Shown: piece after piece, positions 24,308-59,265 of the stretch | How the letters are laid out: each line of letters begins with the position of its first letter | Position numbering within the stretch: the first letter of the stretch is position 1 | Source of the DNA: Lepisosteus oculatus | Taxonomy: Eukaryota; Chordata; Actinopteri; Semionotiformes; Lepisosteidae | DNA: 64,000 nucleotides | Assembly: GCF_040954835.1 (NCBI RefSeq) | Contig: NC_090712.1 | Span: forward strand, 8,255,284-8,319,283 | Reading direction: 5' to 3' | Made by a program: the position numbers and the translations under genes | Notes under the pieces: model-generated | Told to the model about the DNA's origin: nothing | The model's input: only the letters and a program-made list of their open reading frames with translations | The model's database searches: none

Positions 24308-27300
24308 ATGGAGAAGGAGTATAAGGGCAAGGCTCAGACATCCAAAAACATGGCTGGGGTTTATATAGGAATGGTATGTACTTGTGATATTATAAAGTGT
24401 GTAAAAATAGTTTAATAATGTTTGTTGATATTTTTTTAACCACATCATTTATATTCTGAAGTAAACTGATTTCAAACAAAAGCGAAAACATTTATGAGAG
24501 AGATCAAAATAATTGTTATTGATTGTTTTGTTGGTAAGACTAGGGAATGATATAACCAGGGAGGAACACATTTATAGCTGCATTGGTATTTTCATTACTG
24601 CAGTAACCTACCGCATTTTAATATTGTACTTTGTTTAAGATTCACATTGGGAACAATCTTGATCTTTTAGCAAATTTAAATTAATCCCAACAAAAAGCTG
24701 GGGTAATTTAGAAAGCTACAAGTGTTTTATCTCCCAGACAGTTCAAGAATAAAATTAGAATTGTAATTGGAACATTAGATTGAAGGAAGAAATGACCAAG
24801 GGAAAACATTGTTTTAATGTTCAGAGATACAAGACTGTTATAAAACAATAGATACATTATGTTGTTTTACCTCAAACCTATTAGGTTACATTATGCTTTG
24901 TGAGTGCAAGACACAGTTGAATGGCTGATAAATTGGAAGCAATTATCTTAGAGCACAAGGTCTCCCTCAATCCTTGTATCAGTTTTAATAACTTCTTGAG
25001 ATGTATATCTATGATCACAGTCTATGAAACAGTAAATTTAATTTCACTGTCACTACCACTAATTAAATGTGAACTTAAAATATGATTTGTATTTTGATTA
25101 TTATAATGAAAACGTCTGTACTAAACAGAGGCTGTAGATATCAGATGTAAGAATTGGATAAGTAAAAAATATTGGTGATGGCTTCAGATGAAAATTCGAC
25201 ATTACTTTAAGTTGCAAATTTAAATTGAGCATGGATAAGGTTTGTATAATGAGAACTTCAGTTGTTCTGAAACTGGGCTAATCTGTCTAGCAACACTAGT
25301 TTTGATTTAGCCAGGTACAGCATGAAATGTTATTTTTCAAGCTTTTAGCAGAATTAGAACTTTCCAAGATCCCAGGCATTTGTGAGTGCTGTATATTGCT
25401 TAATTAAATCAATCCGAAGAGGAAGTACATGTGGCCAAGGGTGAAAATGCAAAGAGAACATGTTCTAACTTGCCTCATGAAGAAAAGATTAACAGTGAAT
25501 CTAACAAAAATCTGGTATTCAGATTATCCATTGACTTTCCCTTAAAAAGCTTTCATTTAGTTTGAAACTGTGAAGATGGGCACTTGTTTTATGCAATTTA
25601 AATGAGAGGCATTAAAAGGTAAACCACTTAAAAATGCAATGGCTATTATTTATAACAAGAAAATCAAGACCATCGGTGAAGTACTGTTTCTGCTCAGATT
25701 CCAATTCAGGCACTCTCAGTTCATTTTCCTGAAGTACTGGGGTTTATTGAAAATTATGGTTAAAATACTTCAAATATTGTGTTTCCTCAAAAAGTTTATA
25801 ACAATGAATATTTCACATATCTATGTATGAAGAGTATGTACAGATTTGTCTTCTGTTGTCAACCTTTGTAATTGATTATATATTTTTGTTTTTGTCATAT
25901 CTATTTTAATTAACAATACTTATTCCTTATTAAATAATATCAGTTAGCAGAATTGCTTTTGTGTAATTTCAGAATATGGCAGTTTAGAATTTAATATGCA
26001 GATAGGACATCACTGTTAATTCTGCATAGGTTCTGTATGGCAGAGTGGCATGATGCCTAGCAGTTAGTATTGTTGTCTGACAGTTTTTGGGTCCAGGATT
26101 TTGATTCCAAATTGGAGAATCATCAGGGTGGAGTCTGCAGTCCCCTTGGGTCTACAGGTGCTTCAATTTCTTCTTACATTCCTGCCTCACACCTTACGTC
26201 TTGGAAATAGACACTGAGCTTTCCTTTGCTCTTTCTGACAATGGATGGATGTAGAACAGGGCATTGACGTGCACCTTCTTCTTTGTATTATCTGAGGAGA
26301 GATCACCAGCTGCTCTTTAGAGTTGATTCTGAATGTATGTGATGCGCAAGCAAAGCAGGTATGGTGATTTTTGAGGACACAGGAATGTGTTCTTCACCAG
26401 TCCTGTGTGGTACAGCAGGTAGCAGCTCTGTGTGAATTGGTCAGTGCTTGAGAATAGGAACAGTTCAACAAGAACAGAACCCAGAAACATTCTTTAACAA
26501 AAACAGATCCACAGCTCATAATGATTAAATACTATATTAATTGTATTATAGATCTTTTGTGCACATATTGTTTGTCTAAAGAACTCTTTAGTTCTGCGTA
26601 GCAGACAGGATTAAGTTTTTAATGTGATGAGAAAAATAAAAAGATACAAATAGATGCTCTTACGCTCAAACCCATACTTTGTTTCTAGGAAGGAATTCCT
26701 CCTCGAGTGAAACATCCTGCTACATCTCCTCACAGGATCTACAGAAGAAGCAGATGGAGTGTAAAAACACAAACAGAATGCCAATGTTATGTGCGTACCT
26801 CCATTGTCATATAGACAGTATACTGTACATTGCTTTTGTTTATATTTTTGTTTGTTTGGTTTATATATTTTATTGTTCTTTATAAATTTGTTTAGTTGAG
26901 TTGTGTAGGTTCAGAATTTTAAATGGAGACTTTTAGTATGAGGATCCTTTGTCATCTTTAAAGCACAAAGTATTAATCAGAGACCATTTTCATTCAAACT
27001 TTGTCTGGTTTGATAATAGACTATCAGGTCTGACATTACATCAAGTTGATTTAATTTTGTATTCATTGTACTAAAGGTTGTAGAAGAAATCATAGGTATA
27101 GTTTATCTTATAGTATTTAACTTTTATTGTTTACAATATTAAAGAATAATTAGAGAAACACATGATCAAACAGGACATTTGAAGACACACTTTTCTTAGG
27201 ATATTAATATTCATTTTTTCCCCTATGTGGATCCTGTTCCTGTACAGTATATTGTTTTCAATAAGGTTTTGGAGTTGTCAGACAGTGGTTTTTATGGTTA

Positions 27301-30300
27301 TTCTACATCATAAACATGAAACCTCACTATTAATGCTATTATTTTTGTGGTTTTATTTTAATTGTTGATCTCGTCAAATATACCTTGTGTTTTGGGAAAT
27401 AACATTCTTCAAATAAACAGATTTAATTGGCATAGTATTATACATTAAGTTCACAATGATAAAGAGATAATAATAGACATGTTGTATATCAATGATTAAG
27501 AAGACCATTGTCTCTCATACAAATAAGAGCTAAAACCTGTATAGTTTCATAAGGATCAGTTTAATCTTTTTAAAAAAACATCCAATTCACAAAGCATGTG
27601 TATGGCAGCATTTTTCCTAATACTTCCCTTCATTTGCTATATGATAACATAAACACACTAGGTTTCAAAGAGACAATGTTTAAATGTCAGTTACACATTG
27701 GAAATATGTGTGACTGAGCACATAGGAATGATAATAAAAACCTAATCTAATACTGGCAGTGGTGAGTGATTCAGGCTCCTTGTACACTAGATATCCATAT
27801 TGAAATACATGTCTGTGCATGCATTATGTATTACTCTGATTAAAACACAGTGTGACATTTCCTGTTTAATTTAGAAATCTCTCCAGGACAAAACTCAAAA
27901 TCATTATCTTCTTTGATGCTTCCTTTGTGCTTATTTTTGGAGGTGTAGAAGTAATCTTCAACATTTCATTTTATACGTCATTGTGCAGCGAAAGTGAATA
28001 CGTGGTTTCTTTGTAAAGAGATACTACCAACAGATGTAGTAAGCATTGTTCACATTACCTTTACAAATGACATTCTCACCTGGGAGGCCAGTATTGCAAA
28101 AGGCTTTTTAATGACCATTTTTTTCTTTTGTGCTTTCAATCTCTGATGTAATTATTGCTTTTAAGATCTACAACCATACATATGTCTTATTTCCATAAAA
28201 AGGCGGGTGCATTCACTTAAACTTTTTACATACTCTTGTAAGGCCTTCATTGTGAAAATTGTACTTGTCGGTTGCAGTTGTTTTCTCCTGTTGTCTGAAT
28301 TTCAAAAAGGCTAACTATAGAAACAGTGACAACCAGTGGCAAGATTGCATTGTGAGAAACTTGTTGTGCAATCTGATATGTTCAATTGAAATTCAATGCT
28401 TGTAGAGCAGGAAAATCTTTGAAGTATTTATTGCAGCGAGAATGGCAGTTAAACAACCTCATGGAATCAGTAGTGTCAACTCATTCTTCAAGTTGACAGC
28501 TAGATACAGGATATTATTAAAGTAGGTAAGACAGACCAACATCCAAAATGCCATAAAGCAAATGTGAGAGTAACTTGATTTTTGTTTTTGTCTTATTGCT
28601 GATTCAATTAGATTATATCAATTCAGTCATTTCAATTCTTTGTAAAATATCAAATGTTTATAAAATATGTATCTTTATAGCTCCCTACACAACCCATACC
28701 CTGTCCAAACATTCAAATTGGATGATATCTGATATAAGATTTGGAAATGTGTAGTCCTTTCTGAAGCAGTGCATCTCATTTCATATTCATTGAAGTCTAA
28801 CAAGATTAAATAATGCTTAATCCTGGTACAATAACCCTCTTCTGAGAGAAAAAAAAAGATGGTTTTACTTTGCAGCTCATGGAGACATTTTGTTTACCTA
28901 CACAGGAACATATCTATCCCACTGTAGGTACTTGTACTTGTTTTTTGAGAATATAACAGTTTATTGTGGCCATCAGGCTCAGAGTCTTAATGATCTATAA
29001 TACCTTTCAAGACTTTCTTTTGTGACTTTAATAAGGCACACTTGCCAAAATCTTGACAATCCTCCTAACATAATTAAATGTCAATATGTGACGCAGAGCA
29101 CACAGTCTCAAGAATAACTGGCAAGAGCCGAAGTCATGTTATAAAGGGCGTAGAACAAAAATGGTCAACTGTCCATCACGTAGTGATTCCTGAAGGGTAT
29201 GCTATTGCTGCTGTGGACAAAAGGAAATGTTTCTGTTAATAAACTTTTCTCCCATTATATTAGAACTCAGAACTTGCTGAAACCAGCTTTTTTTACTCAA
29301 GGATCTCAAGAGCTTGCTCACACTGAGAAAAGCTTTTCATGACTACTTTATCTTAGATTGAGGTTTTCTAATATAAGCTGCAGGATCTATAATTCACACT
29401 AAACCTGCTGTGTCTCTTCTAATGACTACTGTGTGGTGTACAGTATAGCGCTTTTGTATTTTGGAAGTGCTCAAAATCTGTAAGTCCTCATTGTGTAAGT
29501 TAATTTAGAGTGACTCATCAAAATCAATAATTCATGTTTCATGGCCAGAAATAACAATAAAAGTTTTTATCTCATAATCATACTTTTCTTTAAAGTCTGT
29601 TAAATATCTATAATGTTGAAGCAAAGGTGACTCATGAATTATAAAAAGTAATAATATGATACAGCAGATTTACCCAGAAAAATGTATATTTTTTTTAACT
29701 TTGAGATTTTGTTTCAATTACATTTATACCAGGCAACACAGTGGCACAACGTTTAGCATTACTTGTTCAGCACTGAGGCCCTGGATTCAATTCCAGGGTA
29801 TTACAGTATCTGTGTGGAGTTTGTTCTTTCCCTGTTCACATGGGTTTTTGCTGATAGGTTAATTGGCTTATGGAAAAGGTGGCCCCAGTAGGAGTGTGTG
29901 TTTGTCTGTGCCTGTGTCTGCCCTGTGATGGACTGGTGTTGCATCCAGGGTGTATCCTGCCATGTGTTTTTTGCTTGCCAAGATAGACTCTAGTTCCCCC
30001 ACAACCCTAAATTGGATGAAATGGTTAAAGAAGTGATAAATGGATGAAAAGGAATACCAGCATCTCTCAATGTTCCAGCTGAATTTTACATGCAATGGGA
30101 AAGAAAGTGATGTTATGAAAGTATTTAAATAGGATCTGAATGTTCTTGGCAATCTGTTGTGATTTCTACAATTTATTTGTCTTAGCAACATTAAAATTCT
30201 CTTTCAAACAGATTGTTATGAATTAGGGTCTTTAAAGGGTCTCCATTAATTACAATTGTCTATTTAATAGGAAGCTGTTGTTCTTCAGGAGCAGAAGATT

Positions 30301-33300
30301 AGGGATTGTTTTCATAGGCAAAGAGAAAAAAGATACAAGATGGTTTGAGTACTAGGCATGTACTAACATCTTTGGTTGTAAAATTGTCTATTTAATTATT
30401 ATTTTTGACTTCTAAGAGCTGGCAGTTTTAATGGATTTAATTAGAATGTCTCAGGGCTGCCATCAGGCACTAAACTGCAGAAATGGTTAGCTTATTACTA
30501 AGTCCCAAGACCCATATTTAAACAAATATAAGGTATTACTGTATATCCTTACAGACTGAATGCAATAATTGCTCAGACTTTTCACATTGGATGCATAAAA
30601 GTATTACCTCAATATATTTGTTTCTTAATGTAGCTCTAGCAGAAACAAAAACTTAACACTTGCAGCTAAGGTGGTACTTGAGATGCTGTAATATACAGAA
30701 ACTCATATTTTGTTTTGAGAACCACTTGATATCAGTAATTTCTTTCTATTGGTTGTTAAATATTGTCCATTAACACTTACAAGCATATTTACACCTTATC
30801 ATAATTTGTCCATATTCATTAATTGTTAATTTATATGAAGCTGAATTCAATCTTATTTCAATCTCAAAACATATGCTTTACTGTTTATTGACAGAAGCAT
30901 TACCACCTGTAGTCTAATCCTGTCATATCTCAGAAGCTTTGCAAGGATCAGCCTGATCACCACAGGTTTGTGAGACCCTAAGGTAGATCAGGTTATTCCT
31001 ATTGTTAGTGATGTTTATTGGATCAGATTTGCAATACCGATGCCCCTGTTTGATAGAGGAACACTTTTCTGTAAGAGGTTCTCTCCTTCGGATGAGGTAT
31101 TAAATTAGTCCAGATTAATTCTTCAGATCCCCACGACCCCATAGACTAAATTCTACTTTGTGCTTGTACTGTACAATCATGCCCCTGGAAATATATATGA
31201 TTATTAAAGTAATTGACCCTGCCCCTAATTTCACAACTGTTTTTTTCCTCAGTAAGACAACAATAAAATAAGGAGTTGAAGTAATTGATAGATACAGATG
31301 AATATATATATATACAGTATATACTGTATACTGTGAATAGCTAACTATAGGCTGGGCAAACACTACATGTGTATTTTTTAATAATTGGTTTACTTTTGTT
31401 TTTTCAAAAAAATAAGGTGTATTAATCTTAGCTTGGCAAGAAACATGTTCAACAAACTGCAAAGAGGGAATTTTACAATAACGTTTTAATCCCGGTACAA
31501 GAGTCCTTCTGTAAAAAACAGCAGAGTACCTTTAACATATTCATATTTTTCCTGTAGATGTTTTTCAATTGGTTTCAAAATTTGATTTATATCTAGATGT
31601 TCAAAAAATTATAAAATTAAATGTAGTAAGAAATTGAGCACTTTTTCTACTCAGGTTTTATTGAAAAATTGCAGTCCTGCAAAAATCTATTTGAGCAGCT
31701 AATTAAACAGCTCTTGAATATATTAAGCAGCTTGTACTGTATTTCTAAGAACTAGCAGAACCAGTTACAAACAATTACAATATAAATCAGCTCAGCCTTT
31801 TGGCTTAAATATGCAATATCAACAATATTAACACTGTGGATTCTGGCTCACATGCTTTTTGAATTTAGAGTGGTTTATATCTGAATTAAATTCCATGGAA
31901 TATGTCCCATATCTTCTTCAGTGAATTGTTTTCAACTTTTTTCTTTTGTTTTTTGTTTTGTAAAATTATAGTGTATAGTATTTATTAATGTCCTAGTTTG
32001 TGTCCTGGAATGTCCAATGATTAGAGAATATGTAAGTTGTTTATGATTATTATTGATTATTCTTGATGGTGTTAATTAAGAAATCTTAAAACAAATTGAA
32101 TTTTTGCATATGTATGTTATTTCTAACTTTCTAAATTTCTAAATAGTTTAAAGTTTTTCCCATTATCTGCCGCTTGAGGGAGCCCTTGCCCAGAAACTGG
32201 GTGAATATATGTGCAGGTAGTGGTTTATCCAGTTATCCTTTTCAGGGAAAATAAGTAAAGAAGCACACTGGTAGGGAAGAATATATAGGTCACAGTTATA
32301 TGATACAAAGTTCAAGACAATAACTTGTTTACAAGAAATATCATCTGCCAAGTCTTTTCTCAGTCTGAATTTGTTCTTAATCATTTGATTATCTTCTGTT
32401 AGTATTTTCTGATGTTTTTGCCTATGATTTAAATATTTTTGCCTTTGGTTTAATGTGTAATATAGGTAAGCGATACATAAGTAGAAAACTTCAGAAAACT
32501 TAAACAAGAAAACAGTTTAGATTCTAATCAAGTTCTCCCTTTAACCAGTAATTAAGTCTTTGTCTTTATCTTTGGCTCTAGGAGTTATGAACTTGCACTA
32601 CAGTATATGAAATGTTTTTAACATTTAGTGACTATTGCATTACTAAAACATTATTTTTTAAGGTTATGTTGGCCAGGAATGTTCAAAACATGACACATGT
32701 TAAGCAATCCTAGTCAAACAGAAAATTGGCTAGGCTTAAGGCCTGCAAGCAATTTTCAGCTCTTAACAGTTAAAGTTATGAAGTATACCAAAGAGAAATA
32801 TATTTTAAATTATAGGAACTGGCACAAATTTAACACTGCACGTGTATTATACAGTTCTTCTTTGCTGGTAGATATCCATTTCAGACTGAAGGGTGTTTGT
32901 AAAAGCAAAATTATTTGACATTAAAAAATCAATATGTTGATGATGTTTTTCTCTTCAGAATAAGATTGAGTTACTTCGAAATAAGGAGCCCCAGCAAGGA
33001 TTTACAGGAGCTGTTCTTAAGGTTAGTCAATGCACAGTTTAACTTAATTTATGTACATTATTGAGAATGTATAATGTATAAGGATTTCTTGCGACACAAT
33101 TTCCCCTATTCCATCAATGTGTATATACCACGAATATTCTAGTGCTTTTACAGCTGTAGGTTATTCAGGAATAAATGGAGTTTGCTCAAGACAAATACTG
33201 TATGCCCACATGGGTGAGTAATGGCCTATTTATTACCAGGTATAGCAATCCTGGAGTCAGTGATCCTCCCTGCATTCACACACAGTTACTCCCGAAGCAC

Positions 33301-34090: not shown

Positions 34091-34139
<49 letters not shown>

Positions 34140-37100
34140 TTACCATCAATACCATGTTTTTTTCAGTTTTAGTTTAGATTATTTTATTAATCCGTATTTA
34201 ATTGCATATTAACATAAATATTTTATTTATTATTAATTATATAGATAATTGGCCATTGCTTTTTACTTTATTCTTTAGTTCATTTCAAAGGTGACAGAAC
34301 ATTTAGGCTTTTTATTTTGTGATTGTTCCCCTTAGTGCCTATATTTATCTATGTTCTGTCACATCAGACCGATTTTTAACTTTGAAAATTTACAGTTAAG
34401 ATTCACTTGGTTAACACCACAGGATGCACAGCTTGATCCTCATTATCATCTCACGTTATGGAGTTCTGACGGAAGGTGTACCGGAAATTTGGGAGAGAGG
34501 TTGGATCTCAACCTTGCACACTTCCGCTCGTCTATGTATGTGAGTCTTGCACCCAGGACTCCATTCCGCGCGTCTCCCTCACATCTCCCCCACCCCCCAG
34601 TGAACACCCCTGCAGCAGGCTCCCTTCTGCAGCTCAGGAGGGAAGGTTTGGACAGCTTATTCAGCCTTGGAAAGGTTGCCTTTCCCTTAGCTAGGGGAGG
34701 GAGCTACTTTATACAGTATATTTGTCTCTCTGGTGCATTCAATGGCATCTAACCAAAACCAAAGTACTGAAATATTGGTTGTATTACTTGAGAAAAAACA
34801 TAATTTGATACAGTAGGTTGATACAGAGTTAGAGAAACAGTTGCAGGTAGGATAATGAAATGTAATTCCATAACTGGAGACATCTCGGTATGCTCTGAAA
34901 AAAAAAGTCAAATGTGCTCTCCTTAAATTAAAAACCTGTTTTTTTATTTTTTACCGGCTCTGGAAAACAGTCTTGACAGTGAAAAGACTTCAACCAGAGA
35001 GTGTGAAGTGCAAACAAAATGGATGCCAGCTAGACTGTTCCTTAAGTGTTTATCTTTCTGGACAGGCCTTTTTTCTCAACGAGCAAACATGCTCAGTTAC
35101 AGAAAGAGATGTTTGCACAAGATGTTCTGTCATGGAAAACACTTCATTCTTTGGGTCTGCAATGGTCAGCATGACAGACGGTCTTTGTAATTAACTTACC
35201 CTCCTTTTGATCTGACTAAGCTACAGTACATTTCTATTTAGGAAAATGATAAACACGATCTGAAGTGTTTGAACATGTTAACAGCGTAATGTGAGTTTGC
35301 CCTTCAATCTCACAGGGAGCTCCTCGTAAAGGTTATTGTTGTCTGTTGGTTTCCCGTTTTCTTTTTTTTGGCTGTTGTAGCCATGTACAGTATGCTTAAA
35401 AACTGAAGATCTTACCCCGCAAGCACTGAATATTTTATGCTTGATTCTGTTAGAGCTCTTGAATGACAGGATAAGCTTAGCTATTTTCAGATGTGATGTG
35501 AGCAGTCTCCAGCCATGCAGTAAAATAGTTTATTTGTTATTATTAATTTATGTAGCTATTGCTTTTATCCAAAGCACATTAATGCTACCAAATTCCTAAT
35601 GCAAGAAATTGTATATGGCTAACAAAGTGATCTTGTCTTATGTACTGTATACAGTATATTCTATAACTTATTTTATTTATGTAAATATTATTGATATGTT
35701 TTGGTAATAATTCACACAATTGGGTTTGCTGGAGGGTAAAGTACCCTACTTAGGAGCTCATCATCAGTGTCCTTTGAATGACAGGCCTCCACTATTGCAC
35801 ACATTACTGTGTCAAAAAAGTAAACAATGGTTTTACCTAAACCTATGTTATAATACAGTACATGATCAATCAGAATCTAGTAGATTATCATTATTATTCT
35901 GTATTTTTTTAATAAAAAAGGTTAAAAAATTACTGTTTTCACACTCTCATGCTACATGTGATAGCTAGAATACATTTTCATGAAAAATCCTTCAACACCT
36001 CCTGTAGTACTTGTACAATTTTCACTCTCTCCAAACTCACACAGATATTGTGCTTTTCATTAATATGGATACATATGTGACATGTGGTATATGAAAGTCT
36101 ATTTTAACCCTGCAGTGTATAATTGCTGTAACATTCTTTTCTATTAAGGCATTATATATCACTTTCATATAATGTATAATCTATACAAAAAGGAAAACAT
36201 GCAGCTGTTTTAATGAAATAAAGTAATCAATTCTACGCTCTCTATTGTGCTTGTTTTAACATTTTATCAGCCTTTCCATCCAATTTAATTGTGGTTGCTT
36301 CTGGCTCTCGCGTATCATATACGTAAATGTACTGTATATGGTATTGCTTGTTGTATATTTATGTTTAGATAGTTTCGTTGTTTCAGGGGAGCTTCTCTTA
36401 AGGGGAGCTACATACTGAGAAACCATTCACAACCTGAGGCTATTTCTCTCTAAAACAGTTTCTTTATTGTTTTAGAGAGAGATGCTCTACGGGTGGATCA
36501 ATAAATCATGCTTATTCAGAGGCATAAATAGAAAAAACATGTTTGTTATGTACACTTTTTTGTTTCCTGATGGCACTTTTATCCCTGTTTGATTTTATGT
36601 ATTTGTATTATTTTAATAGATTATGGAATCATTAGGTTGTTTTTTTTCTGTTGTTACATGGCGAAACTGTACTCAGCCTTAGCGACAGTGGCAAGACTGC
36701 TGTGCCTTGTGAGTTTCGTAGCAACTAAAAATTAAATTGGTAGCTAATGGAAGAAATGTAATGCAGCTGTTCTGAAATAGTGGTTTAAAAGTATCAAGGT
36801 GGTATCTTTGGTTCAGTGAAGTCTCTGGCAATTGATTTTTATCTTGAGGAAGAACACAGAGCTGTCCTTGATGGATCTTCTACAGAGTGAAAAGATTTGA
36901 GCTTGATTCTGATTTTGATTAGAAAATAAATCATGCAGGATTTCCTCAGTGTTATTATAGCTTTGCTTTAATAAATGATCTCTCTTACTCATTTGTCAAT
37001 ATGAGCATCGCATTAGTGCTGATGTTGTTACAGGTACTGAGGGCAGCTGCTTCTTCTATTCAAAACTGCACTTACAGTACATGCGATGCCTGGTCAAAAT

Positions 37101-40100
37101 ATATCTGCCCTAATGGGTTTTCAAACAAACTGCACAGTCTTGGGTTTTTGCTATTGCTTTTGTTCTCAAAGCAGGATTTTTACATTAAAAACATTGACAA
37201 TTCTATTGAAGAAATGTTGGACATCTTGTCCTTCAAATCTGATTATTTAGTTTAGAAATTTCTGAAATAAAAAGCTTTCATGTACACAGTATACAATATT
37301 TAAACTCATATTGTTGTGTGGCATAAAGTAACTGGCACAGACACAGAGGAATGAAGAATTTGATGTTGCAGAACATATATACTTTTGTTGTTCTCCTATA
37401 TTGTAGGGAAAATGTAAAGGAGCATAAGATTTGTTTTATCCCTGTCTTCTACATTTACAGTTTCATAAGTAGCTTCTACAAGGACTCTGTTTCCCATTTT
37501 GTATCTGCACTGCTTATGTTTTTGCTACCTTAATGTGATGCTCTGCACATTTATACATCAAACATTACCTTCCAGTCTCAAGATTTTCTTTAATATTCTT
37601 TGTAGCTACAACAGTGTTTGCTTATTCTCGTATTTTTGCATCATTTGTAAACTTAATTACCATGGATATGAAACACTGCTGGCCATTTTCAGAGAAAGAA
37701 AAAAGATTGAAACTGTACTTTTGGCGACTTCTTTGCTTGGTTATTATTAAGCATACAAAATATGTTTAATCTTTCATGTTGTTTTCCTTTTATCCAGATT
37801 GGTTTCCAGAACAAAGTGTGACATCACACCCCCTATATAAACACTGCTACATGATTTCCTTGTGTTGCTATTTCACCTCTCACAGTTACCACTATGCATC
37901 AGGAAGAAAAAACAGGAAGGTGTGACCTTCACTTCCCTTTTAGAAATAAATCACCAAACGTTTTTACCAAAAGGAAAAATACATTTCTTTCCTAACACTG
38001 CTAAGCATTGAGTTGCACAAAACAAACTGTCACAAAACACATCCAAGAAAAATGACTTACTGTGTGTAGGTAGGGTGATATTTCAAAAGGAGCACAGTGT
38101 TAAATTTGAAATGCACTGGAATGTATTGGGAACAGCCAATGGAAACAACAATGTGTAACTGTCAGATAACAAGACAAAATTGTCTGTGAAACAGTTAGTG
38201 CTGCTCTTCATTCTAACCCTTTTTATGATTCTATTTGGAAACATCATCCACTGAAAATGTGCAAAAAGAGAGCATTGTTTATGTAGATTCAGAAATAGCC
38301 CGTTTAATTAATCCATAGACAAGGTACAGTAAAATATGTTCATATATTGTGCAGCTTTGTAAAATACATTATGCTTTACAGTATATTTGGGATATTTCAT
38401 TTTATTTTCCTTTTCACCATGTAAACAGATAAACCCCACCCAAGTGTTTCTAATGAAGTAAATACATCTCTCTTCAACTAAATTATTAGTGGAACAATTT
38501 TAACCTTTTTAATCTTGATGAGTCCATCATTTCAGGATGATGTACTGGCTTAGGAAACCACAGTAAAGAGTGAACAAAATCTAATAGTGCTACACATTTC
38601 TCACAGCTTTAGTCCCCTTTTTTATTTTTCTAAGAGTACTGTTTTTTATTGATATTTGAGGCGTGCATGATTTTAAGAAAAGTATTAAAAGAATGAAAAA
38701 CCAAGGTTTGATTTTAGATGTTGCTGTAAACCCTAAGGAACCACTGATAATGATATACACTCATACATTTTTATCATCCTTTTCCCAACAGCCAAAGGTG
38801 AAGTCTGTCATTGGGGAAGAAGAATTGCCTCCATTCAGCCTGACCAAGAAGGCTCTCCCAACAACAGAGGAGCTGCGAAAACTGACAAGGTAATACATTA
38901 TAAACCTGAGCAGTTTTTAAAGCGGCTTACTATCAGAATACAACAGCAAATATTGATACGATGGCTCCAAGGTCATTGCATTGTGAAGGATCTTGCTTGT
39001 TGTCAGATGAATTTGACAACCTTTTGATTATAAGTATTTTAAAATGCTTTCTCAAAAAAATTAACAGTTCATTTTTTTAGCTGTTTTCTTTTTTTTTGTT
39101 CTTTAGTTTTATTTATGTTTATTTAGTTTTCTTTATGCTTGTATACAAAGTCTGCACAAATTCTATTTATGTATAGCCTCTGCTGACCTAATTTTGAATG
39201 TCCCATTAAAAAACAGGACTGGAAGAAGTTCATGTTCTTGTTTCACTGGTCTGTATTTTCACACATAGTTAACAACCACAAACAGAATTTCTACAAAAAC
39301 AAGGTTGCTGTGTGGGATGTTGTAAGTGCTGCCCTGAGGAGGAGACATCAAACTGAAAACACAATGTTAATTGAAAATCCCTCAACACTGTTTGTAGGTG
39401 TAAGGGTTTTAACCTCAAAGTTCTGGCTAAATTCTACTTTGAACTTGTTCACTCTGACCTACCAAAAGATCCCCCTTACTTCAGCTGCTGCAGCAATTAC
39501 TCACTTCTCTGCCTCATCTGCAGTATATTGTGGCAGCTGGTGCATAATGGTTCCTGGAATTGGGTGGTGAATGAGAAAGGTTCACTCCTATATACAAAGA
39601 ACTTTGTGATCCTTCAGTAAAGCTCTACACAAATACGATTATGTAAAACTAATTATAATTCTTAATGCAGAAGCTCTTGGAAAGGTATTTACAATGTTCT
39701 GTGTACTTGGAAGCATGTGATAACAAGTACCAGACTAAAGAAGAGAACCAAGACTTTTTTAAAAAAGGAGAAATAGAACATTTCCAATTATTTGCCATTC
39801 ATACCGGTACAAATGGAATCTTGAGAGCTTTTCTTCATTTGCTTGTCACTTGCAGTCTGAAGCAAAATTCTATACAATATGCTTCTAAATAAAGAGATGT
39901 TTTGACTACATTGAAGCTCCCCATATCTTTCTGGTTAATATATATACTTTCTACAATATCACCTGTAAACATTGAAATTAGTGATAACTGTTCATTGCTG
40001 ACCTGGAGTGGGTCTGCATTTTGTTGCATTGTAAAAAAACACTGATGTCAAATGGACTCTTTTTTTCCCTTGTTCCTACTTCTCTTCATAATGACATCTT

Positions 40101-43100
40101 CTTCATTACTTCAATTTGTTTTATTTTCAGAACAGAAAAAAGAATTTCAAGTTAACAAGGTTTTTCTAAACGTATGCAGAATGATCAACTAAAATTATTT
40201 GTTTCCTTTCCTTCTGACACTTATTTAGAGTTACAGCACAAAGGTTCTTAATGCAATACAAATGGTCTGGCGGGGGAGGGGTGTCAAACAGATGATGTGT
40301 TCACACATTTGTAACCCTGAATAACAGCTGCGTTGGATAATGTGCATTAAGGTGCCTTTTGAAAATTAAAAAAAAATCCACTGAAGATATGAAAAGCCAA
40401 AGTAAAGATGCAAATACCTTTGTGTTTATCATATTGACTACACCACTAATAAACCAGTAAGGAAGGAGATGATGATCAGCTTGCTGTTGACAGCTGAACT
40501 AAATGTAAAGTAAAAGGAAGCCTATTTGTGAAGCGACTCTAAGGCTAGAGACCAAAGTGTTTTTCTTGTTAAGCAGTGATAGTAAATGGAGCGGTGTTTC
40601 ATCAGAGTAGTGCTAGTATATCTCTACGGCACATTAGACACAGCTTGCTAAATGGAAGGTAAATAACTCTTCAGATTTGTAGCTGCAGCTGCTGGCCTAG
40701 AAATCCGTCTTTGTGATGTTCGTATTAATGAATGGAATGAACTGAATTAGAGACCAAGGAAAACCTTCAGCAACAGCCCCCTCAGGAGATCATAGCTAAG
40801 CTAAAGCTAAGCTCTAGGCAGGGATTTCAAGCTGAGAACTTTTTTCGTTGAAAGCAAACTATACAGAACTTTTTCATTAGATTTGTCTTGTATTAAATGC
40901 TTCATAATTAAGCCCTTTGTCCAATTATAGTAGTCTGTAACTGAGAGTTTATTTCAGATTTATAGTTAACAGTTTCATTGCACTTTTGTGACCCTCCATG
41001 TTTCCTGTACTGTTAAAATTGAAGACCAATGCCATTTAATATCTGCTGACTGAGTTGGGAGGAAGGAGCAGCCATTAACAGCATGGGCGGCTGTCACACA
41101 TGAGCAAACTCAATGCATGTCACCACTCCAGCTGGAATTCCCTTAGCTTGGGAGAGCAAAGAGGCACGCTGCCATGAAATCACAACTGTATGAATCATTA
41201 ATGAATTTCTGTTATAGTATAAAAATAGTGTGACCATGAACTGTATCATCAAATGTGGAATTGAAGTAGGAAATACTACTGAACTTGGATTGCCTTGTAT
41301 TGAATTGCCTTGAGCATCAAATACTAAATGATAAAATAGCACATACTGTAATAGAATTATGAGTGTGAAAAACAAGCCCATAGCTTATTTATCCATACAT
41401 TTTTAACTGCTTCATCTAATTCAGGTTTGTGGGGAAACTGGAGTCCCCTGCACAGGGAGCCAGTGTGATAATATGAAAGGTTGCAGAGCACACACAGATA
41501 CACACACGGTCACACCTAGGCCAGTCTTTCTCAGAAGCCAATTAGCCTTCCAGTTCTGTACTGTATGTCTTTGGAATGTGAGAGGAAAGCAGAGCATCTG
41601 GTGGAAATACAAACAAGTGAGTGCTTCTGGAAAATAAAAAAACAGCATATCACTTGTACTAATAAACTCTTCCTCCATCTCCTCTGTCTCTTCCTATGCT
41701 CCTTAAACTAAACTAAAAGACCCTTGCCTGGCACCCCAAAGTGTCACAATACCCCAATACCCCTTTGAGAGGATGTACTGTAAATGTGCAGGGGATTTTG
41801 TGAAGACATTTCAGAGCATGTGGTGATAACAGCCAATGACATTTCCTTTATTTTTCTGGTTACTTATTTCAATTTGCCTGCCTGAGCCTTCTTGGTCCAG
41901 GGTATGTAGCATTGCCTTACAGTGTTGGGGTCACTAGCTTGTCACTCTGATGTAATTCAGAACACTTCTGACAAGCTGGAATGTCACCTGTGTGCATGCT
42001 CATACAATCAGGCCTCATCTTCCAATCCAGTGTCAGAGCACAATGAATAGGGTCAACTGCTTCATGTCCTCTTGTAGTTCACAGAAGCTGAGTGAGATGA
42101 CAGAAGATATATTATGATCACAAGAATCCTGTGACTTCTATAAAAAGGCATTGAAGGTCAAAGAGTAATTTATCCCTGCCAGATACAGTTACCATCAAGT
42201 TTTGTTTTCTGGGGGCATTTACACAATGTTAATATTGTCATAATCTGGTTATACAGACTTTACTGAATCTCCTGAGAATGTGTTTAGAGGCAGAAGCTGT
42301 ACTTAATGCTGATGAGGTGGCTGCATAAAGGAACAGCTATTTTGTAATGAAAGCATTATCAGCTGTAGCCTATGGTAATAGTAATCTTTCTTTTAATAGT
42401 AATCTTTTCTTAATTCTTTGATATGTTCGTGGGGTCTGAGAATAATCACCACAGCCATTGTGTGCAGAATACTATAGTAAACCTTTGTACAGTATACTGG
42501 TAATTAAAGTGGTTATGATGTGGTATGATTTGTCACCGTAATTACAACTTCTGATGAAAAATAAAAGATGGCCTATTTTCACAGGCATCTGCCAGATTAT
42601 CATCAGGTATGATTAGTGCAGGTCTCTAAAAAGGGTAAAAAAATTCAAACGTTTATTGTGACATGCAGCTGAATGTCAAAAGCCATGGGTGTTAGTCATG
42701 CTTGTCTTCTCTAAAGCTGGAAACCATCAGCAAGCATAAATGCTCCTGTGTTTAAATGTCACCCCTGCTCATGGATTTCTTCCAAGTAAGAAGCAAAAAA
42801 AAAGTAATAGTTAGTCATTTCCATGGGTTATATCAACTGATATGGTACATTACAGCTAAGAATTGCCTTTTTCTGTAACAATCACACAAAATTGCAGGCA
42901 GTATGGTGTTGTGGTGGTTAGCATAGCCTTTACATTGCCTCATGGTATTTGAGTCCTGTATTTGATTCTAGCCTGAAAAACATTCTACAGTATATGGCCA
43001 AATGGGTTTTTGCTGGAAGCTCCAATTTCCACTCGCAGTCCACAGATATGCTGTCTAGGTTGGTTATCCTTGTGTGAGTATGTGTGCTCATACGGCAATG

Positions 43101-49100: not shown

Positions 49101-52100
49101 GCGATTGTTCCTCTGTGTTTTGCGGTGTTTTAGTAAAGATTCAAACAGAGCTAATGTATTCTCACACCAGTAAGCTACCTTGATTATTTCAGTTCTAAAT
49201 TTCTTAAGTTAAAGAAGTAAATAATTGCACATGTTTACATACTTGTATCATTCTAGTTAGTAATTAAAGCACCTACTTTATCCGTTACAAATTATATTTG
49301 TCCAAAGCTATTATTTCTTCAGGTTAGACTCAGATAATATTTTATCAGTCCTGCTCAGCTTGGTAATGATTTTTTTTTCAAGAAATGATCTTGAAAGTAT
49401 TTGTTACAGGAAGATTCTGAGGGAGTATGCTCTGCCATCTGGGAAAGAGCTGAGCTTTCAGGAGAGGGTGGTGAAATGGTGTGCCCTCCAAGGCTGTTCA
49501 AGGAAATTCAGAGCAAAAGACCCCTCTCTCAAGTCCTCTACTACCAAAGCAGGAGGATTGGATACTGTAGTCCTGAAAACAATGCCCACAAAACTCAGAG
49601 AGCAGGTATGTGAATCTCCAACATGAATGCCAGTTTAGGTCTCTTTGTTAACACTGTATCTACTCATGTGTATGTACTGTACGTAAGAAACAGAGAGAAA
49701 TGTAATATAAAATAAGAGTTAAAAAATAATATAATCCATTAGCTCCTTTCGTTTCACATCAGCTCATGGAGTTAAAAAAAACAACAAGATAAAAGAAGCT
49801 GAGACAGGTACAGTATATGCAAATCAATAAACTAAAACAAAACACAATTAAAAACTAGTATATAAAAGTCAGTTTTATGACAGAGTTTGAAAGCAATAAC
49901 TGACATACAAGATCTGAAGTGGAATAGACGACCAAGCGCTGCCACAGAGGTGATAAAAACACCATTACAACATTGTGAACATGAACGTCAGATGTCTGGG
50001 AGTAAAGCTGAAACCTGACCTGATTGATAAAACTAGAAAAATATTATACATCTTGTAATATTATTACTAACTAATACATAAGCCTCTTCTTTTAGTAGCT
50101 TAAGAAATAAAGTATTTTGTAAAGAAAATGCAAGACTGAGCCCTGCATTATTCAGTATCTGGGTTATTTGAGGAAATGTGATGACTTCAGAAACGGTTAC
50201 TATTCTAGAAAATTCAGCCTGAAGCAGGAGACTTGAAAATGAGACCAAATGATTTCCACTGGGACAAAACAGGAGGAATATTACTGCACTGGGTATGCCA
50301 TAAGGGCTGTCTAAATTACATTTTCATGAAGAAAAGCAAGGAAATAATATATGAAGGGACAAAATAAAAGCAGTGACTAATAAGTTGAATTATGCTGAAA
50401 AAATCTGTTTCAATATTTTTTATATTTACTGGTTTAATTCTCTTCTAACCTCAAAGTGTTCAGGTTTTTAAGAATATAAGGACATACTGTATAGTGCGTT
50501 CCCCACTATTCATCACCAAACACTAATTGCTGCAGTTGCATCTTAATTACAGATGACCTACATGTGTGAAAGACATAATGGCTGTATTGATAAAAGTAGT
50601 TAGGCGAGTTCATTTGAAAAGATTAAAAATGGAACGACTGCTTCAGTATATTTTGCTCTCTTTAATGCTCAATACCAGTGTTAAATAACATTTCTCATTT
50701 CTTTCTCATCACTTCAGGTCATATGTAATGAAACGCTGTGCAAAGCACAGCAGAAGCAATCACATGGATCTCATCATGTCCTCTCAATACAGTAAGAAAA
50801 ACAACTTTTTTTAGAAGTTTCAACTGACCTTCTAATGAAAAGTGGCTATTGTGTTCTTAATCTTACATTATATTCACTTAATGAATTCCATGCCCTGAGA
50901 CCAACAGTACAATGCAAAATAGCTGAACTGAAAGGACATGTACAGTAGCTCTAGAAATAAATGTTTTTTTTTTGTCTAAGTATAGCACAAGGACTCAGGC
51001 TGTTCTTTTAGCACCCATGTTGTAAGCTCAAAGATCAAACCACTTGCATTGAAAACCTGTCACTTGACAAAGGGATCTGTGTGCTCTTGAAAACCCAAGG
51101 GAGCAAAATAAATACAAGAAGGTCACCACATTATCAGTCTGGTTATAAAAGAATATTTCCCCCCAAAAATGGAACTAGTAGCATTGTACCTTTCTAAAAA
51201 AAAGGTTAGACCATGAGGTTTACTACAATCATTGTTCAGCATTACAGAGGAAAAATATCTGAGGTGTTTTAGTTTTTTGAAGTGGGTTGGTGTACGTAGG
51301 TTGCAAGCTTATTGCTGTGTCCCTGCATTAGCAAAAGGATTCCGTTTTTTTCAAGTCAGCTTGAACTGTACTTTGAAGTCTCCAGGATAATGTTTTTTAA
51401 ACCAGCGACCCACAGACTTCTTTTTGAATGTGTACAACACCCTCCCCCCCCCCCCCCCCCCCACTATCCCCTCTTCCCTTGTTTTTGAAACTTGTTTTTG
51501 AAGTCTGTTTACTCCCCTGAACTCTTCTCTGGATCTCAATTTTTTGTTTTTGCCTTGACAGGAATCTACAAATACATCCAGAGCCTAAAAGGCTGGGCCA
51601 GTCTGTTGGTTTTGAAACCTCGTGCTGGTTGACATCTGCTAATAACCAATTTCTCCTGCCATCAGTGAGTGTTGGCATCATGCCCACATTTCTCCCCCGC
51701 GCAGCAGTCTCCATGGAGAGAGGGAGACTCGTAGGGCGGCATGGTAAGGTTTTAAGTGAAGTGCTCTGACATGGGCAGAGACAAAAGAGTGATTTGCTGC
51801 TCCCAATCTGAAATACAATTTACTCCCACATTTTCAATTAATTTACTTAGCAGCTTCTACAGCATTTGTGGTCTTGAAGGATGTGTAGGGCTGGTTGTTT
51901 TTAAGTTGCAGTTTCTTGAAAAAGTGAAATGAAACCTGATTTATTAAAATAAAGCCTTCAAAAATGTGAATGTCTGTACACTGAAAGAAAGGAATTGATT
52001 TATTTTCTGTTGTGGGAAAGTTATTTTTTACAAGTTTTACCCTTTGTAATGTCATATTTCCTAGCTAAAGGGTAATTTTTTTTGGTATGGTTTGGTCTGT

Positions 52101-55100: not shown

Positions 55101-58100
55101 TTTTGATAAGATGAAAAAGTGCTGAAAAATCAATTTATGTAATGAAGTAAACCTTAAGAATTTTTTTATTTCTTCATCATCTCTATGAGTTAATATAATT
55201 GTAACTGTAGTTAATTAGTTATGAGATGTACTGTACAGTATATGCATTTTCACAAATCTCCAAAATACAGAGTGGGAAAACATTATATACTGTAAAGATA
55301 TTGTTTCTTAAAAAATCCAGTCACCAGAGGCCAGGTCTCCCTCTATTTTTTCCATTGTTTCTGCTCGTAAGCAGAATAATAAATTTGAAAGGTCACTATG
55401 AAATGTGTAACATGGATGCACTCAAAAGCTGCCTCATTCAACTGTGTGGTGCAATACAGCGTGATTCACAAACACCAGATGCCCTGAAAAATATTTTTTC
55501 TCACATCAAAATGCAGAGGTTTCTATTTAAGAGGACTGTAATCACAAGAATTATCCAGTTTATTACAGCTTACATTACCCTGTTCTTTAAAAAAAGGCAT
55601 TTGTCCTGTCTGATGTTTGAAAATTGAATTTTATAGATGGTATTACAGTAGGTGACATTTCTGGCTTGCACTGCAGATGTTGGATTCTTCTCATAGGGTA
55701 TGCTATCTTCCTCAGAGCTGTTGAATAACTACACCAGTTATTTCAGACAGGCCACTGGAATTATGTCTCTCACTAAATTTATTGAGAATAGTGTTAACAT
55801 CCCACAGACTTGTCTTGGTGTTGAAATCTTGAATATAAATGAAGTGCACTGCACTGCAGCTGATAAAAAAGTGACAGATCAGTTGTTAGTGCTCTGTGCT
55901 AGGCTCAAATTAGTTCAGTTAGTCCTGGTGTTCTATATTTTACATGACAGCTTATATTCAAGGTTGTATTGCTGCAGGCTTTCTAGTGGCCTGGATTCTT
56001 GTATTGTATAATAACTAGTTTCAAGCTGTTGTATTTAATTTTGCTCACAGATGTTTCATTTTGCGAATATAATGGGTAAGTTTAATTTCACCTGAATACG
56101 CAGTACTCCTTAACGTTTTATTGATTTTAGCTTTTTTGAGTCCAACTGAAAATGTTCATGCAATACTTCAATTACAGGCAAACAAGCTGATGGAACTAAA
56201 TGCACAGATGAAGGTGAAGTTCATCTGGCAAGCTTTATCACTTTACCTTCTCATATGTTTAGACAGCAAAGCTTAAAAACCATCTCAAGATGCAGAGAAA
56301 GGACCAGTTATAATCGCACTACCATTAAAATAATTGATTAATAAAATCAGTACACATGGAGAGAAGTCCGCTTATGTGTAGCTCATGTGACTAATAGGAT
56401 AAATGCATCATTGTATTGATCTTATTGTATTGGTCACTACAACTCTTCTCAATGTACAGTGCTGCCTGCTTTATTGTATTGGGGCCATACAATTTGATTA
56501 GCAGAATTATCAGTGTATTACATCTATCTTTGGTAGAGACATGTAAAACACTAAATGAATTTTCAAAGTCTTAGAGCAGAGATTAAAGTCAGGAAGATAA
56601 TGGAACAACCCACAGGGCATTATATCCTAGACCTACTATAGATCTCAAGAAAGCCAAAGATTCTATCTTACTCTGCATGGGTCATTAAGAACATTAGTTT
56701 TAGTGTTATAGATGTTACAAAAGGACATTTATGACCAAACATTTATTAAATTTAATCTTAAACTGCCTGTAGTGATTTCTATACAAGTCAAACAACATTT
56801 GCAGTTTTTTCCCTCAAAAAATAATCTTTGGATCAAAGTTCTTTTAATAGCAGTGATTATCCACAGGAGGAAGAAGGAATGCTACAGTTCATACATCAGC
56901 ACATACTGTATGTGAACCTGATAGTCTGAAACAATTCAGGGGATATTGTTATTGTAAATAAAGGCTGAGAAAACTGAAAAATTGAATTGTTGAAAAAGAG
57001 ATGTGAATTTGTTGCAAGGTCTGAACAATGTTTTATTTTTAGGGTACACTTGTTTCCCAGGCAACAAAAAGCCAGTTGCTGTATCCTCAGTGCCAGTAAG
57101 TCTTGTATCTACATCACTGGAGCTAAAACGAAGATCCAATGGGTATGAGAGTCTCAGACAGGTGAGCTGTGGTCCTGTGGCTGTTTTCAGAATAATATTA
57201 GTTACTTTTTAAATTTCCAACATAAAGACTTGTAAAATGTTATTTCATATCATGTAACAGACTATATAAACTGAAGTAATAATATAAAAAAGTAAGTAGT
57301 TTGTAAAATATTAGAAATGGTTGTTTTAGCAGTTTAAAACCCATGCATCCTCTGTTATAAACTAAAACACAGACACTCCTTAAAGGCACTGGTTGTCTTT
57401 CAATGCTTAAACATTATGTTAAACCAAAGAGGAAGATGGAAATTACGTAGAGAAAACAGCAACAATACGTTTAACAGGTAATGAAATCATCATTATTCTA
57501 TTTGCCTGTTTGTATTCTGAAAAATTAAAATTCATGACATGAAATGCATGTGGTTTAAACTATTGTAATTCAGAGACTCTTAATAAAGATTGATTGGACC
57601 ATATTATGTATATCTTTGCAATAGCATGAGCACAATTTTAAGATGTATAGCGAACAGAATAAAACAAAAATTTACACCTGTTATATTAAAACACAAATGC
57701 ACAAGATATTTAGCAGGCATACAGTATATAGGCATACTGTATATCTGTATGAATGTATTTGCATATATTCATATATGTATGTATATTTGAATTTATGAGA
57801 ATTATACAAAAAATATACTGATTTTCACCATTAGGTATCCATAGCTTTTTTCTTTTTAACTAAGCTACTGTATACGGTATATATATTTTCTCCAAAATAG
57901 GTGTGTGAAGACAACACAACCAACGAAAATCGAAATACAAGAACACTTCCTACAAGAGCCAGATGTAAAGATGTCATGAAATGTGAGTTTGAGGCCTGTT
58001 TTGTCTTATTGCATAACACATGAACAAAGAAAATTATAAGAAAATAACCCACCAAGGATTAAAGCCGGTATAGGTAAGTGATTCATTAGAGATGCCGCCC

Positions 58101-59265
58101 TGCAGGTACTGTATTTTTTAATTATGAGCTGATTTAGATGTGAAATACAAGTGATTGTAAATTATTAGCTCAATTAATTAATTAAGATCAGAGATGGAAT
58201 AAATACTGGAGGACAATTGGTCTTCACGGTCCCAGCCCTGGATAAAAGTTATACCATTTGTTCTGCATTTTCAAAAACAAGTGTGTCAGGTCTGGGTAAT
58301 CACTTCAGTAGCCCAGCTGGATAGCAAATTTGTCAGTCCCTTAATGTGATGCTGATGACAGTCCACTTGGCCTGCAGGACACACTACGCAACAACTGCAT
58401 TCTTTAATAACGTGATAGAGGTCAGCCTTTTAGCCTATTAGAACCTCATTTAATTAAAACCAAAATTACTTTAGTCGTTACTCACAATTGAACAAATTAT
58501 CTTTTAATGTCTTCAATTCGAAGTGAACAGAATGCAAATTTCCTCATTGATCGCACATTGTTAGAAATGGCTATTTATAGGTAAGCCTAAGAGCAAAACT
58601 CAAGTGTATTAATGGTTTAATTATAAACTCTATTAGGGAAGCAATTGTAATCAGTTGTAACTTTCCTTTTTACAGAAAGAGCAGCACAATGCAAGTGTAC
58701 TGTTTTCTTCGCTGTATACAGTATACTGCTGTTGAAAACAGTAGTAAGTTGCAGTTGTGAGTTGTTTCTATATATTGTACTGTATGTTCAAAAGTAAAAG
58801 GAATATGTGTTTTGGCTTTTCTTAAAATGTTTTTTGTTTCAGTTGTACTCATATTTCTTCTTATTGGAAATGTACACAATTGTGGAAAAACTAGTAAATG
58901 GTGTTTTTATTATTGTTAAGTGCTAAAGTTAATATTATAGCCATTTATTAGATTAGCAGCTCTTATGAAACGTGGTTTTCTGAGTACTGTATGTACAGTA
59001 GTCCTAACTGCAAATTATTTCATAAACAATATGAACAATCTCATTCTTAACAGTATGCCTGAATACATTTTTTTCCAATTTTGTATTGATTTCTGTAACA
59101 GAAAAGAAAACATTCTATTTTCTATTTCATTCGAGGTTGTTTTTCACCCCTGTCAAGAAAAAGCATGTATTCATCACTAATAGATCATAACAGTGCGTGT
59201 AGATTTTTCTTTGACTTGCAGTGAAGACCAAGAAACTTTTTCATCACACATTTTTAAAAGTTTAA
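24308..59265 (+). CDS. Unrecognised spliced gene, about 341 aa, in the OTOR-PCSK2 interval
   Basis: I do not recognise this protein. Candidate exons are 24308-24373, 26689-26790, 32959-33021, 38792-38889, 49410-49605, 50718-50791, 51562-51743, 57043-57161, 57901-57982 and 59222-59265. All have AG/GT borders and phases 0,0,0,2,0,2,1,0,1 that join into one 1026-base frame. The exons at 38792, 49410, 50718, 51562 and 57043 are the strong core: exon 51562 (60 codons) and exon 57043 (39 codons) are open only in the frame that the phases demand. The start MEKEYKGK sits in gccATGG with an in-frame TAA four codons upstream. Readable blocks include IGEEELPPFSLTKKALPTTE, TRKILREYALPSGKELSFQE and SLELKRRSNGYESLRQ. 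There is no signal peptide or membrane segment. The protein is basic and Ser/Thr-rich, probably intracellular and partly disordered. If intron 9 is not removed, the frame stops at 58021. First, second, ninth and tenth exons are tentative. Confidence 0.6.
26038..26253 (+). repeat. tRNA-derived SINE, diverged
   Basis: Starts with a tRNA-like head (ggcagagtggcatgatgcct, then 'ggattttgattcc' as decayed B box), followed by 'ggtggagtctgcagtcccct' and a truncated tail 'caatggatggatgta'. Older than the copy at 29731. Confidence 0.5.
29731..30050 (+). repeat. tRNA-derived SINE, near full length
   Basis: Head aggcaacacagtggcacaac with A-box spacing, B box ggattcaattcc, body 'tgtgtggagtttgttctttc', then 'tgatggactggtgttgcatc', and tail 'aatggttaaagaagtgataa'. 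This is the same family as 12337 but on the plus strand. The open frames at 29656-30191 lie in it. Confidence 0.7.
30905..31240 (+). repeat. SINE with 5S-rRNA-like head, diverged
   Basis: The head near 30920-30980 resembles the 5S rRNA box A to box C region: 'atatctcagaagctttgcaa', 'aggatcagcctgatcac', then 'gtgagaccc'. The body has 'ctccttcggatgaggtatta' near 31085, as in fish 5S-type SINEs. It is decayed after about 31200. Confidence 0.55.
32169..32184 (+). promoter_or_regulatory. CTCF-like motif
   Basis: gccgcttgagggagcc differs from the word at 13812 by one base in the core. The match is by eye. It lies in intron 2 of the unrecognised gene. Confidence 0.3.
34082..34138. repeat. Trinucleotide (TAA/ATT)n microsatellite
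   Basis: ATT units switch into a pure run of about fifteen AAT units. The simple repeat sits in intron 3 of the unrecognised gene. Confidence 0.95.
39330..39655 (+). repeat. 5S-type SINE body and tail, diverged
   Basis: 'gaggaggagacatcaaactg', then 'ttctggctaaattctacttt', 'ggcagctggtgcataatggt' and the tail 'ctttgtgatccttcagtaaa' appear in the order seen in the body and LINE-type tail of the 5S SINE family. It covers the 112-aa frame at 39232-39570. Confidence 0.5.
41388..41635 (-). repeat. tRNA-derived SINE, minus orientation, head lost
   Basis: The forward text 'catacatttttaactgcttc', 'gcagagcacacacagataca', 'gccaattagccttccagttc' and 'tgtctttggaatgtgagag' is the reverse of the tail and body of the family at 12337. 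The tRNA head is decayed. Confidence 0.6.
42896..43110 (+). repeat. tRNA-derived SINE, diverged
   Basis: Head ggcagtatggtgttgtggtg, decayed B box 'gtatttgattctagcc', then 'ggtttttgctggaagctcca'. The tail is truncated. Confidence 0.55.
43250..43430 (+). repeat. LINE-like 3' region
   Basis: 'ggagaacaggaggcagttcc', 'gaatctgacaccttggcttc', 'aagaaacagctgcgggagat' and 'cctttctgttcttatgcatg' follow a dispersed LINE-derived repeat. The minus-strand piece at 6172 comes from the same element. Confidence 0.55.
45045..45335 (-). mobile_element. Non-LTR retrotransposon reverse-transcriptase remnant
   Basis: The minus strand translates, with frame shifts, to recognisable reverse-transcriptase pieces. ESGNYRPITANIMEIIVKAK matches the NYRPISL block, and downstream FDKVPHKGLI matches the AFDKVPHxxL block. 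Stops and shifts lie between them, so it is a dead fragment of a LINE (L2/CR1/jockey-like; clade not resolved). The metal-binding YxDD motif is not seen here. Confidence 0.65.
46040..46285 (-). repeat. tRNA-derived SINE, minus orientation, diverged
   Basis: 'gacaggatgctagtccattg', 'aatgtctttaggaactggga', 'gaaaacctgtgcagatatgt' and 'cttgagcagtgaggcagcaa' match the reverse of the tRNA-type SINE body and head. Confidence 0.55.
51444..51462. repeat. Poly(C)/poly(G) tract
   Basis: A run of 19 C on the plus strand, 99 bases before the exon at 51562. It could form an i-motif or, on the other strand, a G-quadruplex. Confidence 0.9.
58130..58650. promoter_or_regulatory. Candidate conserved non-coding element
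   Basis: This 500-base stretch lacks repeats and open frames. It is dense in homeodomain-type TAATTA/ATTA words, and is more balanced in composition than its surroundings, with blocks such as tttaatgtcttcaattcgaa. It resembles developmental enhancers by eye only; conservation cannot be tested here. Confidence 0.25.

What the first reader, a model, noticed from the sequence alone, without database searches (positions are those of the whole stretch)
24308..59265. An undescribed spliced gene between OTOR and PCSK2
Ten candidate exons on the plus strand join, with matching phases, into a single frame of about 341 codons. In exons 51562-51743 and 57043-57161 two of the three frames are closed, and the open one is the frame the neighbouring phases demand. 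The product resembles no family I know. As I recall, the human OTOR-PCSK2 interval has no annotated gene, so this may be a gene lost in mammals or a lineage-specific one.
Basis: partly seen in the sequence, partly recalled or inferred. Interest (0 to 1): 0.75.

Follow-up and report, generated by a model that had tools for sequence, protein, structure and literature searches.

The report
Probable orphan spliced gene near OTOR
Between two well-known genes of a vertebrate genome there is a string of exon-like pieces that reads as one protein, probably a real gene that none of the family libraries names, though no second animal genome was at hand to prove it.

Summary
The exon chain is there: the named junctions are GT-AG, phases match, and 51562-51743 and 57043-57161 are each open only in the frame their neighbours require. 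That alone proves little: best in-phase chains in control DNA score as high. But a frame-blind exon scan, trained on 31 neighbouring exons, ranks 57061-57161, 51562-51743, 49410-49605, 38792-38889 and 32959-33021 as the interval's five best plus-strand exons. Six of its top nine join in one frame; shuffled copies did so in 1 of 3000. Against it, codon usage of the four core exons is at chance level, and the coherent chain shrinks to 4, 4 or 2 of nine when scoring terms are dropped. PCSK2 is not in the window but starts about 6.2 kb beyond it. The product (307 aa as rebuilt, pI 10) has no significant Pfam or PDB relative, and a search of its own 1.2-Gb genome returned only its own exons. I judge a real coding gene likely (0.72). 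'Undescribed' and 'lost in mammals' were not testable. First, last and tenth exons are weak.

The parts
24308..24373 (+). putative first coding exon (22 codons, ends in phase 0)
   Evidence: ATG in GCCATGG context; donor 6.9 bits; codon z 2.68; exon 4-mer z 1.23. Not assessed by the internal-exon scan.
32959..33021 (+). internal exon, 21 codons, phase 0-0
   Evidence: acceptor 10.1, donor 7.7; fifth of the frame-blind exons of the interval
38792..38889 (+). internal exon, 98 nt, phase 0 to 2
   Evidence: acceptor 10.4, donor 5.5; fourth of the frame-blind exons; codon z 2.65
   Evidence: acceptor 5.9, donor 5.8, z 0.44
49410..49605 (+). internal exon, 65 codons; alternative acceptors in the same frame at 49323 and 49359
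   Evidence: acceptor 5.0, donor 9.9; third of the frame-blind exons; frames 0 and 1 both open; acceptors 9.5 at 49323 and 6.2 at 49359
50718..50791 (+). internal exon, 74 nt
   Evidence: acceptor 10.1, donor 5.2; ninth of the frame-blind exons; frames 0 and 1 both open
51562..51743 (+). internal exon, 182 nt, single open frame
   Evidence: acceptor 11.0, donor 9.8; second of the frame-blind exons; one match in the genome, itself
57043..57161 (+). internal exon, 119 nt, single open frame; a stronger acceptor in the same frame lies at 57061
   Evidence: donor 12.5; acceptor 5.7, or 9.8 at 57061; 57061-57161 is the top frame-blind exon
57901..57982 (+). internal exon of 82 nt, or start of a terminal exon whose frame ends in TGA shortly after 58020
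   Evidence: acceptor 5.8, donor 7.9; exon 4-mer z 2.91; read-on translation. The frame-blind scan preferred a longer, closed form, 57901-58073.
59222..59265 (+). putative last coding exon ending in TAA
   Evidence: acceptor 7.7; 25% G+C and GC contrast -0.13, unlike an exon; 4-mer z 1.37. Weak.

Best explanation
A spliced, protein-coding gene on the plus strand between OTOR and PCSK2. Its supported core is seven internal exons (32959-57982). With the putative end exons it would make a soluble, basic protein of about 300 residues (pI 10.0) without a recognised domain. Shown: splice-site quality, exon-like composition on this strand, frame coherence, no second copy found. Inferred: that it is transcribed and translated. 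Most likely way of working, by inference only and with low confidence (about 0.2): a fast-evolving intracellular adaptor that works through short motifs, for instance by docking protein phosphatase 1 through RVVKW, which follows a helix-like stretch (EELRKLTRKILREYAL, judged by eye).
For: Frame-blind scan of both strands of 130 kb: 4 hits at score 22 or more in the 35 kb of plus strand, against 2 unlabelled hits in about 219 other strand-kb, 0.3 expected; hits antisense to known or candidate exons were left out of that count. Six of its top nine exons join in one frame; shuffled copies of the same nine reached six in 1 of 3000, as for the BFSP1 strand (6, 1 of 3000). Strands without a labelled gene reached only 3, 2 and 2, values met by 514, 2272 and 2208 of 3000 shuffles. 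The plus strand keeps a gene-like top-nine mean (20.2-21.5) with four reduced training sets, chains 4, 7, 6 and 6. GC-adjusted strand-specific exon score: mean z 1.32 for the nine exons against 1.44 for 31 known exons left out one at a time. Exons join without stops. On splice sites and openness alone the best chain of this strand, 169.3, beats five controls at 132.3-150.3. A genome search at E up to 10 gave eight matches, all at the candidate's own exons.
Against: Codon usage of 49410, 50718, 51562 and 57043 has z 0.66, -0.72, -0.28, 0.58; 31 real exons average 2.24 and 153 pseudo-exons -0.01; likelihood ratio 0.012 for these four and 0.24 for eight exons. The rebuilt chain itself scores no better than the best chains of control DNA. 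Exon GC contrast is about as high in chance chains picked by codon score. Dropping the 4-mer term, the contrast term or both lowers the coherent chain to 4, 4 and 2 of nine, no longer clear of the controls. One control chain also has exon-like 4-mers (mean z 1.03). One unlabelled strand, 185-220 kb minus, reaches 7 of nine. The real gene PCSK2 does not stand out in the shuffle test (272 of 3000). The test was designed after looking at the region.
Confidence: 0.72

Rival explanations
1. Chance: intergenic DNA with scattered splice-like sites and GC-rich patches, chained by a reader who could choose among many.
For: Control strands give equal or better in-phase 7-exon chains by the codon-weighted score: 170.3 on the minus strand and up to 225.2 in the PCSK2 region with its exons removed, against 166.5 here. 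Openness-only chains of 424-1,421 codons arise on seven control strands at the strictest setting. Codon usage of the core is at chance.
Against: A scan that knows nothing of frames picks the same exons, and their frames agree to this extent in 1 of 3000 shuffles; most strands without a labelled gene do not behave so.
Confidence: 0.17
2. A spliced non-coding RNA, or a remnant of a former gene, whose exons happen to be open.
For: Strong splice sites and exon-like composition need no coding; codon bias is near zero in the core exons.
Against: Six frame-blind exons share one frame, rare in shuffles; no stop in the joined frame of the nine exons before the final TAA.
Confidence: 0.09
3. Upstream or alternative exons of PCSK2, which lies on the same strand about 6 kb past the window.
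For: Same strand, the next gene found downstream.
Against: The frame has its own stop options (TGA just after 58020; or TAA at 59265) before PCSK2.
Confidence: 0.02

Closest known systems
REV1 ubiquitin-binding motif region (PDB 5vzm_B)
   Same: 42 residues around LDTVVLKTMPTKLREQV align to it, E = 0.1; that this is the first ubiquitin-binding motif is recalled.
   Different: Chance-level score and no Pfam match for the core.
Ada2/TADA2A (PDB 2cuj, 2aqe; SWIRM domain, name recalled)
   Same: 66 residues across the 38889/49410 junction align with one short gap, E = 0.09.
   Different: Chance-level score; no SWIRM match in Pfam.
Orphan or poorly annotated vertebrate genes of small, basic, domain-less proteins (general knowledge)
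   Same: Spliced, no second copy found, weak codon bias, no domain.
   Different: No relative outside this genome could be looked for.

Membership tests
spliced protein-coding gene | GT-AG introns and one open frame with matching phases | tested here: met
   frame coherence beyond shuffles
spliced protein-coding gene | codon usage like that of coding exons (usual, not defining) | tested here: inconclusive
   the four core exons fail (likelihood ratio 0.012); eight exons together 0.24; 24308 and 38792 are high
spliced protein-coding gene | transcription, and conservation in other species | not testable with these tools
   no RNA-seq, no other vertebrate genome or proteome
Ada2 SWIRM domain | significant match | tested here: not met
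   phmmer E 0.09, no Pfam SWIRM match
REV1/UBM ubiquitin-binding protein | significant match | tested here: not met
   phmmer E 0.1, no Pfam match
DUF5712 | score above the gathering cut-off (25 bits) | tested here: not met
   16 and 17 bits

The most novel reading that the evidence does not exclude
The gene belongs to a vertebrate family absent from Pfam and lost from mammals, kept at a fixed place between OTOR and PCSK2.
Probability: 0.25. Interest if true: 0.6.

Novelty: new member of a known kind. Interest (0 to 1): 0.4.

Why it matters
That would make it a candidate for a gene family lost in mammals, or born in one lineage, and one that annotation leaning on homology could miss. It also shows how far one genome alone can carry such a claim: chaining exons means little, but frame coherence among exons chosen without regard to frame is informative.

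Tried and rejected
Dinucleotide-shuffle null for exon chains: rejected as too easy, since the minus strand also beat all 200 shuffles. GC contrast of seven internal exons (0 of 20,000 random sets of open pseudo-exons as high): discounted because ten control chains picked by codon score have mean contrasts of 0.055-0.128, near the 0.132 here. Density of well-bounded open exons (17 in 42 kb plus, 9 minus, 15 and 11 in 56 kb of PCSK2 region): only a mild excess. REV1, SWIRM, DUF5712, Cdc13, polybromo and glutamate mutase resemblances: all sub-threshold. Arena_glycoprot, on the minus-strand frame at 51400-51819, also sub-threshold. Protein scans of bacterial/archaeal genomes (17 stretches matched a pattern, none confirmed) and of viral contigs (4 stretches, none confirmed) found no relative, as expected. 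Paper searches (1, 1, 4 and 2 papers; listings and starts of abstracts seen, none opened): nothing seen there on a gene in this interval. No structure prediction was made, because a spliced product is not a contiguous translation of the window. In one search, two of my eight control exons were given in a wrong frame; one search replaced them, and dropped one of 32 listed control exons that had no open frame at the coordinates used.

Full report
What the window is. A 64-kb stretch of a 1.2-Gb genome in 813 contigs, on contig C17 at 8255284-8319283. Recalled human proteins locate SNRPB2 (exons from 14296 to about 17700) and OTOR (19187 to about 21205) on the plus strand. PCSK2 is not in the window. 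After fetching 200 kb downstream, its first matched exon lies at 70166 counted from the window start, about 6.2 kb past the end and on the same strand. The species was not identified.

The observation. Every junction named is GT-AG; 51562-51743 and 57043-57161 each have one open frame of three, the right one. The ends are uncertain: the frame of exon 57901 runs on to a TGA shortly after 58020 if the donor at 57982 is not used, and the last proposed exon (59222-59265) is AT-rich, unlike an exon. Stronger acceptors in the same frame exist at 49323 and 57061.

Is it more than chance? First attempts gave no clear answer. A splice-plus-codon chain finder beat all 200 shuffles on the plus strand, but on the minus strand too. 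With real DNA as control, the rebuilt seven-exon internal chain scores 166.5; the best chains are 170.3 on the minus strand and 138.6, 132.7, 225.2 and 186.3 on PCSK2-region strands with the PCSK2 exons removed. With splice sites and openness only it scores 148.8, against 132.3-150.3 on these five controls. So 'ten exons join in phase' is by itself no evidence. In its favour, the best chain that this strand allows is above all five controls on splice sites and openness (169.3), though not with codon weights (190.9). Codon usage of the four core exons is at the level of pseudo-exons (z 0.66, -0.72, -0.28, 0.58; 31 real exons mean 2.24, 153 pseudo-exons mean -0.01; likelihood ratio 0.012, and 0.24 for eight exons).

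The test that changed the picture does not use reading frames. Exons were scored by splice sites, GC-adjusted strand-specific 4-mers and GC contrast with the flanks. The 4-mers were trained on 31 exons of other genes: 19 placed by tblastn with SNRPB2, OTOR and PCSK2, and 12 taken by eye from peptides, those at 118-129 kb read as BFSP1. On both strands of 130 kb, the plus strand of 24.3-59.3 kb holds 4 hits at 22 or more, against 2 unlabelled hits in about 219 other strand-kb (0.3 expected), with 8 known-exon hits. At 20 or more it holds 5 against 1.4 expected; at 18, 9 against 3.2; at 16, 19 against 7.4. Hits antisense to known or candidate exons were left out of the outside counts. Its five best are 57061-57161, 51562-51743, 49410-49605, 38792-38889 and 32959-33021; 50718-50791 is ninth.

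Of these top nine, six join in one open frame. Among 38 overlapping strand-windows, four reach six or more: this one, 64-99 kb plus (PCSK2), 118-153 kb minus (BFSP1), and 185-220 kb minus, which carries no label but zinc-finger-like peptides by eye. Shuffling each of the nine exons gave six in phase in 1 of 3000. The same test on other strands, each against its own observed value: 118-153 kb minus (6) 1 of 3000; 0-35 kb plus (4) 73; PCSK2 plus (4) 272; the minus strand here (3) 514; 130-165 kb plus (2) 2272 and minus (2) 2208. With four reduced training sets the top-nine mean stays at 20.2-21.5, and the coherent chain is 4 without PCSK2, 7 without SNRPB2/OTOR, 6 without BFSP1 and 6 with SNRPB2/OTOR/PCSK2 alone; dropping the 4-mer term, the contrast term or both lowers it to 4, 4 and 2, no longer clear of the controls. 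The test was designed after looking at the region, and its numbers should be read with that in mind.

What it encodes. The joined product is basic (pI 10.0, 34.4 kDa, GRAVY -0.52). Pfam gives only DUF5712 at 16-17 bits and Cdc13_OB4_dimer at 12 bits, both against a cut-off of 25. PDB gives REV1 (E 0.1), Ada2 (0.09 and 0.21), glutamate mutase (0.098) and polybromo-1 (1); none is significant. A search of the whole genome at E up to 10 returned eight matches, all at the candidate's exons, eight of nine; exon 51562 matched as DNA only itself. One phosphatase-1 docking pattern, RVVKW, lies after a helix-like stretch that spans the 38889/49410 junction; by my estimate such a pattern turns up by chance in a fair share of proteins of this length, so it is only a lead.

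Verdict. A protein-coding gene is likely (about 0.72), chance about 0.17, a non-coding RNA or remnant about 0.09, PCSK2 exons about 0.02. Whether it is undescribed, lost in mammals or lineage-specific cannot be told here. Four paper searches (listings and starts of abstracts only) showed nothing on it; an automatic annotation as an uncharacterised gene is quite possible.

Noticed in passing
34336-34749: GC-rich island with long open frames on both strands (138 codons plus; exon-like 34455-34690 on the minus strand). No Pfam match for the plus frame; its copy number in the genome could not be obtained.
   Followed up: partly
41425-41616: Exon-like stretch on the plus strand (acceptor 8.0, donor 9.1, one open frame), seventh in the frame-blind ranking but not part of the in-phase chain.
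   Followed up: no
37798-37919: Exon-like stretch on the plus strand (acceptor 10.5, donor 7.6), eighth in the ranking, not part of the in-phase chain.
   Followed up: no
8647-8759: Exon-like open stretch on the plus strand upstream of SNRPB2 (score 33.8), not assigned to a gene.
   Followed up: no
51444-51462: Run of 19 C about 100 bases upstream of exon 51562.
   Followed up: no
34093-34138: Perfect (TAA)15 microsatellite.
   Followed up: no
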